A stretch of 64,000 bases of DNA from a virus: positions 1 to 64,000 of the IMG/VR virus record IMGVR_UViG_3300020055_000003, one strand, 5' to 3'. Shown piece by piece: positions 20,365 to 24,499 of the stretch (position 1 is the stretch's first letter; the number at the start of each line of letters is the position of its first letter). A program made the position numbers and the translations under genes. The notes beneath the pieces are model-generated. The model searched no databases and had not been told where the DNA came from. It worked only from the letters and a program-made list of their open reading frames with translations.

Positions 20365-21774
20365 ATGAATGAAGATGAAATAATTAATATTATCACAAAT
20401 AGTAGTTTTCAAGATTTACAAAAACTTAGGGTGGACTCTGACCACATATCACTTATTGAATTACCAGACATTTATGGTGCTCACCTATATTGCACTTTCA
20501 TAAATTCTGGAGAGACAATGGATAGATATTTTGGGTGGCATAAAGGTGAGTTTAATGGTACATACTATGGTTCGCCAGTTAAACATTCAAAAAAGTTCTG
20601 GTCAGATATGCGAAAGTATCCTAGTTTAACTTTATGTTTTAATGTTGGAACTCCAAGAGATATGAATGTGAGGGAGGGTAAAATACTGAAGGCTATCGAT
20701 GCAAAGTCTAATGAAAAGTTCTTCAATGAGAGCAATGGTGGTGGTGCATTAACTAAAGGTCAAAAATCAATTACTGCATTAGATAATATTGTTTATAACT
20801 TAGAAAAAAATGTATATCCAATTCAAAAAGTAGATAAACATAAACTCTATGCTATACAACCACACCAAGTAAGAGAAGTAATGGAAATACCTAATAAGGT
20901 GCAATCTATTCTTAATCATATACTAGATACAAAAGGTAGATGGTTGGATGGAAATTTTCATTACGTTTTAATTCTTAAAGATTTCTATGGTAAAGATAAA
21001 CATCTTAGGATAGGTAGTTTTCACACACTAAAAGCTTGTATGAAAACAGATTTTGTTGGTGAATTAGATGCTGTCTTTATACCGAAAAAAGATTGGATTA
21101 ATTTAGACGAAACTGAAATTAAAGATTTAGGACATACAGATAACAAAAGAGATGATAAGGTAAATGATTCTGTAAGTTTATCAGAGGCTATATCAAATGC
21201 CGTTTCTTTTATTAGAAATAATAATATTGAAGACCATAAAGACCAAAGTGTAAAAGATAAATTCATGCGTTGGGGATTTACTAAAACTGAATGGGAAGCA
21301 ACTATTAGAAAAACTTTACGAAATACACTAAATGATAGTAAAGCAAAAAATGCAATACCACCCAATCATATTAAAAAAAGCTGGACTGAAAAAGAAAAGT
21401 CTCAGATGATTGAAAGACATACAGACGAGAATACTTTTGTTTTTATTTTATCCACAGCTTGGTGGTCAAATAGATGGGTAGGTTTTGACGCACTAATGAA
21501 TATTGTAAAGAATGAGGAAGCATTTAAAAAAGATTATTGGAAAATATTCTGGTTAAATGAATCAGACACAGCGTTTTTAGATTGGAATAAGATAAAAACT
21601 AAAAAAGATGAAGAAGGTAATGTGGTTTTAAAACCAACAAGAAAAACTAATATTGAACATGATTTACAAATTTTGTTTTCAAAGTTTGCTGAAGATATTA
21701 GACCTATTCTTATTTTTGAAGATTTACCATATTCAGAACCTAACGAAATTAAAAATGATAAAAAAGTATCTTGA
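20365..21774 (+). CDS. GIY-YIG-like / ParB-like fusion protein
   Basis: 469 residues from the ATG after AGAGGA; the frame is open further upstream but runs through the promoter. Residues about 38-127 look like the GIY-YIG-type domain of phage homing endonucleases: YCTF...DRYFGWHKGEFNGTYYGS, a central RKYPSLTLCFNVGTPRD-like stretch, and a terminal FFNESNGGG that fits the usual FYN...GG ending. Residues about 155-300 resemble a ParB/sulfiredoxin-like domain (a PHQVRE start, then LRIGSFHTLKACMKTDFVGE and FIPKKDW). The C-terminal third is unassigned. It heads a four-gene operon and overlaps the next gene by 20 nt. Homing endonuclease, DNA-sequence recogniser or modification partner are all possible; domain calls are tentative. 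Confidence 0.5.
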   Translation: MNEDEIINIITNSSFQDLQKLRVDSDHISLIELPDIYGAHLYCTFINSGETMDRYFGWHKGEFNGTYYGSPVKHSKKFWSDMRKYPSLTLCFNVGTPRDMNVREGKILKAIDAKSNEKFFNESNGGGALTKGQKSITALDNIVYNLEKNVYPIQKVDKHKLYAIQPHQVREVMEIPNKVQSILNHILDTKGRWLDGNFHYVLILKDFYGKDKHLRIGSFHTLKACMKTDFVGELDAVFIPKKDWINLDETEIKDLGHTDNKRDDKVNDSVSLSEAISNAVSFIRNNNIEDHKDQSVKDKFMRWGFTKTEWEATIRKTLRNTLNDSKAKNAIPPNHIKKSWTEKEKSQMIERHTDENTFVFILSTAWWSNRWVGFDALMNIVKNEEAFKKDYWKIFWLNESDTAFLDWNKIKTKKDEEGNVVLKPTRKTNIEHDLQILFSKFAEDIRPILIFEDLPYSEPNEIKNDKKVS

Positions 21775-22615
21775 AAAACATATTAAAGATAATGTGTTAG
21801 ATGAAGAAGTTAGTTTACTATTAAGTGGTGGTCTTGATTCTATATCTGTTGGTATTTCTGCTGAACTAGTTGGGAAGAAAGTAAACGCATATAGTTTTTA
21901 TCTTGAAGGTGTTCCTTCATATGACTTTGCAATGGCTGCTAATATTGCATCACAAAGAGGTTGGAATTTTACTCCAGTAGTTGTTCCTACTACAAATCTT
22001 AATGAAGATTGGTTTAGATTAGTTGATTTGGGTTGTAGAAAGAAAACTCATTTTGAGTGTGTATTTCCTTTCCTATATGTTTATCCAAAAATAAAAGAAA
22101 AGTATGTTCTTACTGGTTGGGGGGCGGATGGATACTTTGGACCAAGTAAAAAAGCTATGATGCGATATTCTAGTTATAGAAATAAAAAAAACTATGTTAA
22201 ATATTGTAAAGAACACAATCAAAAAAGATTGAACTGGAACGAATTCAGACTTGAATATCTTGATGGAGACTGTGCTGGTTACAAAGAACACACAACCCTT
22301 GCGGAAAAACATGATAAGATACACATAGCACCATATAAAGATAGTAAAGATATTAGAAAAGAATTGATGAATAAGAGTTGGACAGAGTTAAATACACCCA
22401 GACAAAAAGAAATTATAAGAAAAGACTTTACAATACTAAAAAAGTATGGTAATATAAAGCCACATATAAATTTACACCTCGGTTCTGGTATAGATAAATT
22501 GTTTGAAACTTTTTTGAAAGACTCGACAATTAATTTCAATAATAGAAAAAGAATAATGGATGTTTGTAAAGATTGGTATAAAAATCCGAATAGTTTGAGA
22601 AGGTATAATATATGA
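21755..22615 (+). CDS. Asparagine-synthetase-type PP-loop ligase without glutaminase domain
   Basis: 286 residues. The PP-loop SGGLDS is at residues 24-29, followed by the AsnB-like AYSFYLEG strand, and TGWGADGYFG aligns with the usual GxGADELFGG (the Glu after GAD is Gly here). It equals the C-terminal, carboxylate-adenylating half of asparagine synthetase B or β-lactam synthetase; the N-terminal glutamine-hydrolysing domain is absent, so ammonia or another amine would be the nucleophile. Start chosen at 21755 because a longer frame overlaps the previous gene by more than 100 nt. It ends in an ATGA overlap with the cytosine methyltransferase gene. Inferred role: amidation of a carboxylate on modified DNA; free aspartate amidation is the alternative. 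Confidence 0.72.
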   Translation: MIKKYLEKHIKDNVLDEEVSLLLSGGLDSISVGISAELVGKKVNAYSFYLEGVPSYDFAMAANIASQRGWNFTPVVVPTTNLNEDWFRLVDLGCRKKTHFECVFPFLYVYPKIKEKYVLTGWGADGYFGPSKKAMMRYSSYRNKKNYVKYCKEHNQKRLNWNEFRLEYLDGDCAGYKEHTTLAEKHDKIHIAPYKDSKDIRKELMNKSWTELNTPRQKEIIRKDFTILKKYGNIKPHINLHLGSGIDKLFETFLKDSTINFNNRKRIMDVCKDWYKNPNSLRRYNI

Positions 22616-23808
22616 GTTATACACCATATAATTTACAAGATGTTTATGATGCATCTGAACAGAACAAATTTAAAGTGATTTCAACTTTTGCCGGTGGTGG
22701 TGGATCTTCCACTGGCTATCGTCTTGCTGGTGGTAAGGTTCTTGCAGTAAATGAGTTTGTAGAAGAGGCATGTAATACCTATAAAGAAAACTATCCAGAG
22801 ACACCTATTCTGCCTGGCGATATTAAAGAATTGACTGGGCAACATTTCTTGGATGCAGCTGGAGTAAAAGTTGGGGAGATAGATATTCTGGATGGTTCTC
22901 CGCCATGTTCTGCGTTTTCTGTGGCAGGCAAACTATCTCATAATAGTATTGAAACTGAATACTTAGATTTTGATGGTAATGTTATGACACGCAAAGAAAG
23001 TGGTAAACATTCTGATGGATGGGGTCAAACTAAAAAGTATTCTGATGGAAAGATAGTTGAAAATATTGAAGATTTGTTTTTTGATTTTCTGAGAATTGCT
23101 GATGAAATAAAACCAAAAGTAATCATTGCAGAAAATGTTAAGGGATTGACTGTTGGAGAAGCAAAAAACTATCTTAATCAAATACTCAATAGATTCGAGG
23201 AAATTGGATATAATATTTCGTATCAAGTTTTGGATAGTAGATATTTTGGAGTTTCGCAGACTCGAACCAGATGTATTTTTATTGGAGTAAGACAGGACAT
23301 TGCCGATCAAGTTGGCTTGAACTTTATGACAATTCAAAATGTTTTTCCAACTCCAGATTTGAAAACAATTCCTCTGAAAGATGCTTTGATTGGTTTAGAA
23401 TATGATGATGAAGAAATTTCTTATCTTACTGAAAAGTTTTCTAATACTGCATATTGGAAACAAACTGGTAGTATAATGCCCGTTGATCCAGATAAAGTTC
23501 TAACAGGAGGCGATTATCACCCGAAAGGACACCACTTTAACTTGAAAAGAGTATCACAGTATGCTCCAGCACCGACCTTAACCGCTATGGGGAGTGCTGA
23601 TACTACTGCTGGTGCATTCCACTGGGCAGAACCTAGAAAGTTGACCCTCGGCGAGCTGAAGCGCATTATGTCACTTCCAGATGACTTTAAACTTACTGGA
23701 AAATGGAATCAAAAAGCAGAAAGAATTGGAAGGATGGTTCCGCCACTGATGATGAAAAGAATTGCAGAATCTGTATATAAAAATGTTTTGGAGAAATATA
23801 ATGGCTGA
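22612..23808 (+). CDS. Cytosine-C5 DNA methyltransferase with Arg in motif X (candidate carboxymethyltransferase)
   Basis: 398 residues with the full m5C methyltransferase motif set: motif I TFAGGGGSSTGYRLAGG (about 25-41), motif IV GSPPCSAFS with catalytic Cys99, motif VI ENVKGL, motif VIII QTRTR, and C-terminal motif IX/X. Motif X reads RIGRMVPP instead of the usual QIGNAVPP: the Asn that contacts the cofactor is Arg374. From memory, changing this Asn to Lys in M.MpeI (N374K) allows use of carboxy-SAM and gives 5-carboxymethylcytosine. The next gene encodes a carboxy-SAM synthase homologue and overlaps by 8 nt. The target-recognition region lies between motifs VIII and IX; specificity cannot be read. 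That it is a C5 enzyme is seen; the altered product is inferred. Confidence 0.88.
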   Translation: MSYTPYNLQDVYDASEQNKFKVISTFAGGGGSSTGYRLAGGKVLAVNEFVEEACNTYKENYPETPILPGDIKELTGQHFLDAAGVKVGEIDILDGSPPCSAFSVAGKLSHNSIETEYLDFDGNVMTRKESGKHSDGWGQTKKYSDGKIVENIEDLFFDFLRIADEIKPKVIIAENVKGLTVGEAKNYLNQILNRFEEIGYNISYQVLDSRYFGVSQTRTRCIFIGVRQDIADQVGLNFMTIQNVFPTPDLKTIPLKDALIGLEYDDEEISYLTEKFSNTAYWKQTGSIMPVDPDKVLTGGDYHPKGHHFNLKRVSQYAPAPTLTAMGSADTTAGAFHWAEPRKLTLGELKRIMSLPDDFKLTGKWNQKAERIGRMVPPLMMKRIAESVYKNVLEKYNG

Positions 23809-24499
23809 TTTCACATTTGCACACCGCGAAGAAGGTTTTGATGAACATATTGATAAAAGTATTAGAGGTTATGGAGATTTGTTGGATGATGTAATTTCTC
23901 TATCAAGATACTTTGTGGAAGATGGTACTAATGTTTATGATATTGGATGTTCAACTGGTAAACTGACTCAACGAATGTTGGAGGCAAATCAGGATTTTTG
24001 TTATGATGCAAATTATATTGGTATTGAAGTTGCAAATGGATTTTATGATGATATGATAAAAAGACAGGAGCATATCAGATCAATACACCCTTGGGTCCGT
24101 GTTGATTTTAGACATGAAGATGTAAGAGACACTGAATTTGAAAATGCCTCTTTAATTACTTCAATATTTACTTTGCAGTTTATGTCAAAAATTGATCGGC
24201 GATTTACTATTCAAAGAATTCATGATGGATTGAATGAAGGTGGCGGTTTTATTTTTGCAGAAAAAACTATTTGTCAAAATGCAAATTTTCAAGACATGCT
24301 CACATTTAATTATTATGATTTCAAAAGAAAATCTTTTGATACAGAAGATATTATGAATAAAGAAAGAACTCTTAGAAACATGTTGAAACCAAACACTTGG
24401 CAAGAAATAAATGAAATGATGTGGGACGCAGGTTTTGAAGATGTCCAACCTTTCTGGAGAAATCATATGTTTGTTGGAGCAATTGCCATAAAAAAATAA
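23801..24499 (+). CDS. cmoA: CmoA homologue, carboxy-S-adenosylmethionine synthase
   Basis: 232 residues (E. coli CmoA about 247). The match runs end to end: FDEHIDKSIRGYG for the FDE...RSVPGY start, VYDIGCSTGK (45-54) for VYDLGCSLG, the ENASLITSIFTLQF stretch (114-127) for ENASMVVLNFTLQF, GLNEGGGFIFAEK, DFKR (173-176), and Arg189 at the place where I put E. coli Arg199. CmoA converts SAM and prephenate to Cx-SAM, normally for CmoB to modify wobble uridine in tRNA. No CmoB is seen here; the upstream neighbour is a cytosine methyltransferase with a cofactor-pocket Arg. Prephenate would come from the host shikimate pathway. Family assignment is strong; the DNA-directed use is inference. Confidence 0.85.
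   Translation: MADFTFAHREEGFDEHIDKSIRGYGDLLDDVISLSRYFVEDGTNVYDIGCSTGKLTQRMLEANQDFCYDANYIGIEVANGFYDDMIKRQEHIRSIHPWVRVDFRHEDVRDTEFENASLITSIFTLQFMSKIDRRFTIQRIHDGLNEGGGFIFAEKTICQNANFQDMLTFNYYDFKRKSFDTEDIMNKERTLRNMLKPNTWQEINEMMWDAGFEDVQPFWRNHMFVGAIAIKK

What the first reader, a model, noticed from the sequence alone, without database searches (positions are those of the whole stretch)
20365..24499. Candidate natural DNA carboxymethylation-amidation pathway
Four overlapping genes under one promoter encode a GIY-YIG/ParB-like protein, an AsnB-type carboxylate-activating ligase, a C5-cytosine DNA methyltransferase and a CmoA-type Cx-SAM synthase. Overlaps (20, 4 and 8 nt) suggest one functional unit. 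Known biochemistry links the parts: CmoA makes carboxy-SAM from SAM and prephenate; a C5 methyltransferase able to accept it would make 5-carboxymethylcytosine; an Asn-synthetase-type ligase could then form an amide, by analogy with ncm5/mcm5 uridines in tRNA. Such a modification would shield phage DNA from restriction and CRISPR nucleases. The genes and motifs are seen; the pathway and final base are inferred. I cannot tell whether it has been described elsewhere.
Basis: partly seen in the sequence, partly recalled or inferred. Interest (0 to 1): 0.95.

Follow-up and report, generated by a model that had tools for sequence, protein, structure and literature searches.

The report
Phage cytosine-carboxymethylation cassette, variable nuclease slot
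This phage carries a recently published gene set that attaches a carboxymethyl group, then an amine, to cytosines in its DNA, and its first gene, whose kind changes quickly between relatives, looks like a DNA-cutting enzyme that may attack DNA lacking the mark.

Summary
The four overlapping genes at 20365-24499 are real (overlaps 20, 4, 8 nt). The inferred pathway was published in December 2025 for Synechococcus phage S-B43 (PMC12783734): CmoA makes Cx-SAM, CmoX carboxymethylates cytosine, CmoY adds glycine. The window proteins are 61%, 58% and 41% identical to those and keep the Cx-SAM-binding Arg, present in all 144 CmoX ORFs that reach that position. The core is a member of a known system; its final amine is unproven.

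What I did not find in print is the first gene: a GIY-YIG-like domain with most catalytic residues conserved, then a ParB/Srx domain. In 118 loci (the window's own included) with an ORF just before the ligase, this slot holds GIY-YIG-ParB (22), DUF262-like-HNH resembling SspE (18), other families that I read as ParB-like, a type II R-M methyltransferase (3; restriction enzyme checked in one), or nothing extra (34). Slot content differs in 63 of 120 ligase pairs of at least 90% identity. I infer nucleases aimed at DNA lacking the phage's mark. This is untested; an accessory NTPase or homing endonuclease remain rivals.

The parts
20365..21774 (+). first gene of the cassette ('slot' gene, family F1): predicted GIY-YIG-like domain (aa ~36-135) + ParB/Srx domain (aa ~150-264) + C-terminal alpha/beta domain; 469 aa
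   Evidence: AlphaFold2 model pLDDT 80.4, pTM 0.47; ParB fold Z 8.5 to 6sdk, rmsd 2.9 over 97; Seg-like/homing endonucleases among viral fold matches, e.g. rmsd 2.3 over 96 and 2.7 over 100 columns (aligned range not printed, N-terminal placement inferred); Y42, Y55, E104, N121 invariant in 19 sequences
21755..22615 (+). CmoY-like ATP-dependent amide ligase, AsnB synthetase domain only, no glutaminase domain; 286 aa
   Evidence: Pfam Asn_synthase 1e-10 only; 41% identity to SpCmoY of S-B43 over 280 columns; profile hit to beta-lactam synthetase 1jgt 4.4e-6
22612..23808 (+). CmoX-like DNA cytosine C5-carboxymethyltransferase; SPPC at 96-99, Cx-SAM Arg at 374; 398 aa
   Evidence: 472.6 bits to solved SpCmoX 8yf3, against 76.8 for the next chain; 58% identity; residues
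23801..24499 (+). CmoA-like carboxy-SAM synthase; 232 aa
   Evidence: 61% identity to SpCmoA; 7.7e-28 to 4gek, listed as tRNA (cmo5U34)-methyltransferase

Best explanation
The cassette makes hypermodified cytosine in the phage's own DNA. CmoA converts SAM and prephenate to carboxy-SAM; the CmoX homologue transfers the carboxymethyl group to C5 of cytosine in double-stranded DNA; the ligase adenylates the carboxylate and joins an amine, most likely glycine or another small amino acid, because it has no glutaminase domain to make ammonia. The mark shields the DNA from restriction. Shown elsewhere, for the S-B43 enzymes: all three reactions, HhaI resistance of carboxymethylated DNA, and the glycine amide in virion DNA. 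Inferred here from homology and residues: that these three proteins do the same. The first gene most likely encodes a nuclease whose ParB/Srx domain binds nucleotide and DNA and whose GIY-YIG domain cuts DNA lacking the mark (host or competing phage); this step is inference only (about 0.4). The confidence given is for the three-enzyme pathway.
For: Identity to S-B43 CmoA/CmoX/CmoY 61/58/41%. Of 47 PDB sequences matched, SpCmoX is far above all others. CmoA beside CmoX in 120 of 126. A serine hydroxymethyltransferase gene (PF00464, 1e-148 and 2.3e-142; makes glycine) sits just 5' of the ligase, or of the slot gene, in two related loci of 160. First gene.
Against: Nothing has been measured for this phage. 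Its ligase belongs to a group with a conserved insertion (window residues ~146-157) and His instead of Gln at 241, so its amine may differ from glycine; the paper also reports other ligase clusters with other active sites. The host, and so its prephenate supply, is unknown; no Photo_RC gene in the record. First gene: no significant Pfam or PHROG hit, no nuclease found by a profile of its N-terminal domain among solved-structure sequences, no GIY-YIG structure among the PDB fold rows shown, and no invariant Arg in its GIY-YIG region.
Confidence: 0.88

Rival explanations
1. Rival for the first gene: it is a non-cutting accessory of the modification machinery, a ParB/Srx NTPase that loads or regulates CmoX or the ligase, as DpdB (ParB-like ATPase for base insertion) or DndB may do in other DNA-modification systems.
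For: ParB/Srx fold closest to nucleotide-bound ParB. DpdB and DndB precedents (passages of PMC12839542, and PMC10853773). Genes that I read as ParB-like, without a recognised nuclease domain, fill the same slot (families F3, F6, F9). Moraxella phage Mcat8 has ParB_N, CmoX and CmoA only.
Against: In family F1 seven of twelve invariant residues lie in the GIY-YIG region, odd for a non-catalytic part. SpCmoX and SpCmoY worked without a ParB partner (PMC12783734). At least 34 of 118 ligase loci have no slot gene. In F1 (15 of 22 members complete enough) slot distances do not track the ligase (Mantel r 0.11, p 0.15) or CmoX (0.04, p 0.33), whereas ligase-CmoX gives 0.75. A type II R-M methyltransferase family fills the slot in three loci.
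Confidence: 0.3
2. Rival for the first gene: slot genes are homing-endonuclease-like selfish inserts next to the cassette, with no part in the modification biology.
For: GIY-YIG and HNH are common homing-endonuclease folds; viral fold matches include Seg-like homing endonucleases; weak PHROG 'homing endonuclease' hits in 6 of 19 F1 members, best 0.012; patchy, fast-changing distribution.
Against: Fused ParB or DUF262-like domains, occupants without a recognised nuclease, and a type II R-M pair are not typical homing endonucleases. 21 of 22 F1 stop codons overlap the ligase start, by the start rule used in the call. The slot gene keeps its place before the ligase while the T4-type gene further upstream differs (gp43, gp44 or gp46). 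F1 members are very diverged (mean difference 0.73), not recent copies.
Confidence: 0.14
3. The final base is not the glycine amide: the ligase joins another amine, or the product remains 5-carboxymethylcytosine.
For: A conserved insertion (~146-157) and the H241/Q change separate the window's ligase group from SpCmoY; the paper reports ligase clusters with distinct pockets.
Against: 33 residues are invariant across the 24 ligases aligned from both groups, SpCmoY included; no glutaminase domain; SHMT neighbour in two loci.
Confidence: 0.35
4. CmoX is an ordinary 5mC methyltransferase using SAM, and CmoA serves tRNA modification.
For: Both belong to methyltransferase superfamilies.
Against: R350-equivalent present; closest to SpCmoX, which accepted only Cx-SAM (PMC12783734); tight CmoA linkage. 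A relative without CmoA nearby (phage Melnitz) has Leu at that position.
Confidence: 0.04

Closest known systems
CmoA-CmoX-CmoY of Synechococcus phage S-B43 (MN018232; PMC12783734)
   Same: Three homologous enzymes, clustered with overlaps, 61/58/41% identity; SPPC and Arg conserved
   Different: Order CmoA-CmoY-CmoX in S-B43, slot gene-CmoY-CmoX-CmoA here; S-B43 has CmoA, not a slot gene, directly before the ligase; the window ligase carries an insertion
Moraxella phage Mcat8 ParB_N, CmoX, CmoA genes (KR093632)
   Same: ParB-domain gene (PF02195, 1.2e-6) directly before a CmoX with the Arg and a CmoA-like gene (65 bits)
   Different: No ligase found there; small ParB domain that Pfam recognises; no nuclease domain seen
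Methylophilales phage Melnitz C5-MTase / Tet_JBP / GIY-YIG-ParB genes (MZ577097)
   Same: The only records of 50,697 with a tblastn match (E <= 1e-3) to the window's first gene: four Melnitz isolates, the gene close to a C5-MTase
   Different: MTase has Leu for Arg; no CmoA among the annotated neighbours; a Tet_JBP oxygenase (3.6e-11) suggests a hydroxymethylcytosine route instead
SspE / GmrSD (BrxU) modification-sensing nucleases
   Same: Relatives' slot family F2 has an invariant D-G-x-H-R motif, a ParB/DUF262-like part and an HNH part: HNH of Cas9 Z 9.1; SspE 6jiv Z 7.1, rmsd 2.8 over 115; BrxU among the matches, but with rmsd of 12 or more
   Different: Those are bacterial defence proteins; the window's own gene is GIY-YIG-ParB without the DGQ-R motif or HNH
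DpdB / DndB ParB-superfamily proteins of DNA-modification systems (passages only)
   Same: ParB-superfamily protein encoded with DNA-modification genes
   Different: No fused GIY-YIG or HNH domain mentioned in the passages seen; cellular systems

Membership tests
CmoX (DNA cytosine C5-carboxymethyltransferase) | SPPC motif with catalytic Cys and R350 binding the Cx-SAM carboxylate | tested here: met
   SPPC 96-99 and R374 in the window; of 148 ORFs, R in the 144 that reach the site; SPPC in 146, GTPC in 2 (L102, L103)
CmoX (DNA cytosine C5-carboxymethyltransferase) | Genomic linkage to CmoA | tested here: met
   Overlaps CmoA by 8 nt; 120 of 126 loci
CmoX (DNA cytosine C5-carboxymethyltransferase) | Uses Cx-SAM and not SAM; makes 5cxmC | not testable with these tools
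   Needs enzyme assay
CmoA (Cx-SAM synthase) | Homology over full length to characterised CmoA | tested here: met
   61% to SpCmoA over 229 of 232 residues; 4gek 7.7e-28
CmoA (Cx-SAM synthase) | Prephenate-dependent carboxylation of SAM | not testable with these tools
   Needs enzyme assay
CmoY (AMP-forming amide ligase) | AsnB-type synthetase domain with SGG-DS motif, no glutaminase domain, linked to CmoX | tested here: met
CmoY (AMP-forming amide ligase) | Glycine-binding pocket | tested here: inconclusive
   Shared invariants but an insertion and H241/Q; the pocket residues are given in a supplement that I could not read
ParB/Srx fold (first gene) | ParB/Srx fold | tested here: met
   25 best rows are ParB/Srx-type chains, Z 8.5 for 6sdk, rmsd 2.9 over 97 residues; 7bm8 probability 1.00, E 1.4e-3
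GIY-YIG nuclease (first gene) | Fold and Tyr, Tyr, Glu, Asn active-site residues (set recalled) | tested here: met
   Y42, Y55, E104, N121 invariant, G57 18 of 19; Seg-like and other homing endonucleases among viral fold matches. Against: no hit to Pfam GIY-YIG
GIY-YIG nuclease (first gene) | Catalytic Arg (recalled from I-TevI) | tested here: inconclusive
   No invariant Arg in the region across 19 sequences; invariant Tyr67 and Lys131 instead
SspE/GmrSD (first gene of the window) | DUF262 DGQ-R motif plus HNH/DUF1524 domain | tested here: not met
   Window protein has GSFH at the conserved ParB-domain His and a GIY-YIG region; no HNH or DUF262 hit. The features are seen in relatives' family F2
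Homing endonuclease (first gene) | Cuts slot-less alleles of its neighbour | not testable with these tools
   Needs cleavage assay or crosses

The most novel reading that the evidence does not exclude
Hypermodification in these phages is one half of a phage-borne, restriction-modification-like weapon: the cassette marks the phage's own cytosines with a carboxymethyl amide, and an exchangeable slot gene (GIY-YIG-ParB, SspE/GmrSD-like DUF262-HNH, or a true type II R-M pair) destroys DNA without that mark, that is, host DNA or competing phages. Frequent swapping of the slot would reflect conflict between phages.
Probability: 0.38. Interest if true: 0.86.

Novelty: new variant of a known kind. Interest (0 to 1): 0.52.

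Why it matters
The core was recovered from raw sequence and is a base-modification route known in print since December 2025. This uncultured phage record may already be among the paper's 5,615 CmoX sequences, which I could not check. The open point made testable is the ParB-domain gene that the paper left unexplained: in many of these relatives the gene before the ligase is a ParB- or DUF262-like fold joined to a nuclease domain, in a fast-changing slot. If such proteins read the phage's own mark, viral DNA hypermodification is not only camouflage but a self-mark for attacking other DNA, and a source of nucleases that tell carboxymethyl-amide cytosine from plain cytosine.

Tried and rejected
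Ordinary 5mC methyltransferase: rejected on the Arg, closeness to 8yf3 and CmoA linkage. Glutamine-dependent amidation by this protein alone: rejected, no glutaminase domain. A slot gene tied to one genomic neighbour: not supported, F1 and F2 occur downstream of gp43, gp44 and gp46 (8 of 22 and 5 of 18 had no such gene in reach). A slot gene co-inherited with the ligase: not supported by Mantel tests in F1; in F2 (11 of 18 members) ligase-CmoX gave only r 0.29, p 0.03 and CmoX-CmoA 0.13, p 0.25, so that sample says little. My early impression that ParB genes go with one ligase clade only was partly wrong: genes that I read as ParB-like also precede the other ligases and, in 10 of 22 ligase-less loci, CmoX (L035, L048, L051, L056, L062-L065, L073, L075); L014, L015, L017, L018 and L081 have gp46- or gp43-like ORFs there instead. 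Homology between slot families by profile comparison: not significant (best E 0.004, probability 8.8%), so 'ParB-like' for F3, F6, F9 and F19 rests on my reading of motifs. Pfam, PHROG and PADLOC scans of F1: nothing significant. Profile of the F1 N-domain against PDB sequences: no nuclease. PDB fold search showed no GIY-YIG structure among the rows printed. No PDB match of either model reached E 0.001. Promoter scan: not above shuffles. GC dinucleotide is not depleted in the window (observed/expected 1.03). Photo_RC search of the record: none, host unresolved.
Full report
OBSERVATION. Four ORFs on the + strand overlap by 20, 4 and 8 nt and all begin with ATG: 20365-21774, 21755-22615, 22612-23808, 23801-24499. 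Pfam identifies an asparagine-synthase domain (1e-10), a C5 cytosine methylase (4.8e-58) and a class I methyltransferase; PHROGs calls the last a tRNA methyltransferase (4e-61). The first ORF has no significant family hit. The record is a virus sequence of 203,815 bases with T4-like neighbours: sliding clamp and clamp loader downstream, and ORFs that I read as gp47/gp46 upstream. There is no promoter evidence beyond chance.

KNOWN PATHWAY. The search returned PMC12783734 (Nat Commun, 7 Dec 2025), of which I read the abstract, introduction, results, discussion and the start of methods and searched the main text for a few terms. For Synechococcus phage S-B43 it reports a phage CmoA making Cx-SAM, CmoX making 5-carboxymethylcytosine at GC motifs, CmoY ligating glycine to it, and the glycine amide in virion DNA. 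It also reports 5,615 CmoX candidates with 4,257 CmoA, 2,251 ligases and 1,660 PF02195 ParBc proteins, the last of unknown function. The sources include IMG/VR v4, so this record may be among them.

MEMBERSHIP. The window CmoA is 60.7% and CmoX 58.3% identical to those of S-B43 and the ligase 41%. CmoX scores 472.6 bits to the solved SpCmoX (8yf3) and 76.8 to the next chain, out of 47 sequences matched. The Arg that binds the Cx-SAM carboxylate is R374 here. In 148 CmoX ORFs of at least 300 aa from 138 loci (the window's own copy and S-B43 included), R is present in all 144 that reach the position, and 4 end before it; SPPC is present in 146, while L102 and L103 have GTPC. Among loci with at least 600 nt after CmoX, CmoA starts within 1.5 kb of the CmoX end in 120 of 126; of the 6 misses, 4 have CmoA elsewhere in the locus and 2 (L107, L216) have none. 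Hence the three-enzyme pathway is very likely the same. The ligase amine is less sure: 33 residues are invariant in the 24 ligases aligned from both groups, but the window's group has a conserved insertion around residues 146-157 and His241 where SpCmoY has Gln. In two related loci a serine hydroxymethyltransferase (1e-148 and 2.3e-142), which makes glycine, lies just 5' of the ligase (L094) or of the slot gene (L228), which favours glycine there.

FIRST GENE. An AlphaFold2 model from 19 sequences has mean pLDDT 80.4 and pTM 0.47, so domains are more reliable than their packing. Residues ~150-264 match ParB bound to CDP (6sdk, Z 8.5, rmsd 2.9 over 97), and the 25 best rows are ParB/Srx-type chains; the tool warns that a best Z of 7-8 is common, so the consistency of the rows matters more than the score. 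Foldseek's best PDB hit is ParB 7bm8 (E 1.4e-3). Viral fold matches include ParB proteins and homing endonucleases: A0A0F6R4V3 (rmsd 2.8 over 94 columns, E 2.7e-4), A0A0F6R536 (2.3 over 96), A0A7S5UY47 (2.7 over 100), and the SegE-like GIY-YIG protein A0A6J5NT98 (3.5 over 120); aligned ranges are not printed, so their placement on the N-terminal domain is inferred. Of 407 assessed columns 12 are invariant: Y42, Y55, Y67, E104, L108, N121, K131 in the GIY-YIG region; Q168, R170, H220, P240, N260 in the ParB region; none in the C-terminal part. The Tyr-Tyr-Glu-Asn set is that of GIY-YIG nucleases (recalled); no invariant Arg was seen. A profile of this domain found no nuclease among PDB sequences, and PHROG support is weak.

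THE SLOT. From 231 loci I kept 160 non-redundant ones; 138 have a ligase and 118 an ORF ending within 250 nt of its start. Of the 20 without one, 16 have the ligase at a contig start and 4 (L022, L102, L162, L169) have room but no ORF of 100 aa there; I left all 20 out of the counts. The 118 fall in 21 families: DNA polymerase gp43 (24), clamp loader (9) and a gp46-like protein (1), meaning no slot gene (34); GIY-YIG-ParB F1 (22, own copy included); F2 (18); F3 (12); F5 (6); F6 (5); F7 (3); F8 (3; a second AsnB-like protein); F9, F10, F11 and F12 (2 each; F10 is CmoA itself in other gene orders); and seven more single families, among them F14 (CmoX itself), F16 (SHMT), F19 and F20. F2, modelled from 16 sequences (pLDDT 82.4), matches Cas9-type HNH domains (Z 9.1) and SspE (6jiv Z 7.1, model residues 1-129, rmsd 2.8 over 115); BrxU of the GmrSD family is listed with Z 7.4 and 7.0 but rmsd 16 and 12. 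Its D-G-x-H-R residues and the HNH-region H415, N429 and N438 are invariant; L204 passes Pfam HNH (3.7e-6), and L058 has a PADLOC type II restriction-enzyme hit (5.7e-7). In L013 the slot protein is a type II methyltransferase (4.4e-43) preceded by a type II restriction enzyme (3.3e-15); L008 and L164 carry the same methyltransferase family, their restriction gene not scanned. F3, F6, F9 and F19 look ParB-like only by motifs that I read; profile comparison did not confirm it. In 10 of 22 ligase-less loci a ParB-like ORF, again by motif, lies directly before CmoX.

HOW THE SLOT BEHAVES. Ligases with 100% identity (L009, L012, L013) carry F3, F9 and F7; of 120 pairs with ligase identity of at least 90%, 63 differ in slot content, empty slots included (pairs are not independent). 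All 22 F1 rows lie in one supported ligase group of 48 rows (100/99), in which 42 of 43 assessable loci have a slot gene. By a sequence-motif definition of the narrower group it is 35 of 35, against 34 empty of 83 in the rest. In F1 (15 of 22 complete enough) slot distances do not correlate with ligase, CmoX or CmoA (r 0.11, 0.04, 0.03), whereas ligase-CmoX is 0.75 and CmoX-CmoA 0.57; in F2 (11 of 18) slot correlations are 0.11, 0.19 and -0.14, ligase-CmoX 0.29 (p 0.03) and CmoX-CmoA 0.13. F1 and F2 follow gp43, gp44 or gp46 in different phages. In 21 of 22 F1 loci the slot stop codon overlaps the ligase start, with the start taken by a simple rule. Searches started from single slot proteins, which reach close relatives only, found them beside a ligase in 5 of 5 loci for F1, 7 of 7 for F2 and 6 of 6 assessable of 7 for F3, with gene checks. 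In 50,697 phage records the window's first gene matched four Melnitz isolates, in Melnitz close to a C5-MTase with Leu at the Arg position and beside a Tet_JBP oxygenase; F1 of L036 and F2 of L128 matched none.

INTERPRETATION. Cassettes can lack this gene (at least 34 of 118), but in these limited searches the gene itself was seen only near cytosine-modification genes; it carries nuclease domains with conserved residues in two unrelated designs; and a type II R-M pair can take its place. I read it as an effector that needs the mark rather than a part needed to make it. The precedent is SspE, whose DUF262 domain senses phosphorothioate and whose C-terminal nuclease nicks invading DNA (passages of PMC9646914), and GmrSD, a ParB/Srx-fold GmrS with an HNH GmrD (passages of PMC4619093). 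The counter-precedent is DpdB, a ParB-like ATPase for base insertion (passages of PMC12839542), and DndB, for which several roles are discussed (passages of PMC10853773). No step of slot function has been tested.

NOVELTY. The pathway is known. 'GIY-YIG' does not occur in the main text of PMC12783734, and its one use of 'endonuclease' concerns protection from restriction; its supplements were not read. Searches listed no paper whose title or abstract start concerns nuclease genes in Cx-SAM cassettes (listings only; one search showed 15 of 33, 15 of 21; open-access library). The Melnitz paper mentions a type II DNA methylase for gene 5 (one passage).

Noticed in passing
L094:563-1708 and L228:3687-4874: Phage serine hydroxymethyltransferase (PF00464, 1e-148 and 2.3e-142) next to the CmoY/CmoX/CmoA genes; would supply glycine, the amine shown for SpCmoY.
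   Followed up: partly
L013:5682-7170: Type II restriction enzyme plus methyltransferase (PADLOC 3.3e-15, 4.4e-43) in the slot of a phage whose CmoX is 94% identical to the window's.
   Followed up: partly
L206:6807-9141 and nine more loci (L209, L211, L214, L220, L223, L225, L229-L231): Two tandem CmoX ORFs, each with the Arg and scoring 622-652 bits; 9 of these 10 loci have the DNA polymerase directly before the ligase, that is, an empty slot, and L229 starts too close to a contig end to tell. The pair may have different sequence specificities.
   Followed up: no
L027:5405-6295, L197:564-1583: A second AsnB-like protein precedes the CmoY ligase, possibly a second amide-forming step.
   Followed up: no
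L233:4010-8090 (phage Melnitz, MZ577097): C5-MTase with Leu in place of the CmoX Arg, Tet_JBP oxygenase, GIY-YIG-ParB protein and a P-loop kinase-like ORF in a row: candidate hydroxymethylcytosine hypermodification locus in a cultured phage.
   Followed up: partly
L102:3195-4127 and L103:3582-4745: Divergent CmoX-like ORFs (250 and 295 bits) with GTPC instead of SPPC but with the Arg, beside CmoA and ligase.
   Followed up: no
L003 (phage S-CRM01, NC_015569): CmoA and CmoX with no ligase gene annotated or detected nearby in a cultured cyanophage; its DNA should show whether bare 5-carboxymethylcytosine occurs.
   Followed up: no
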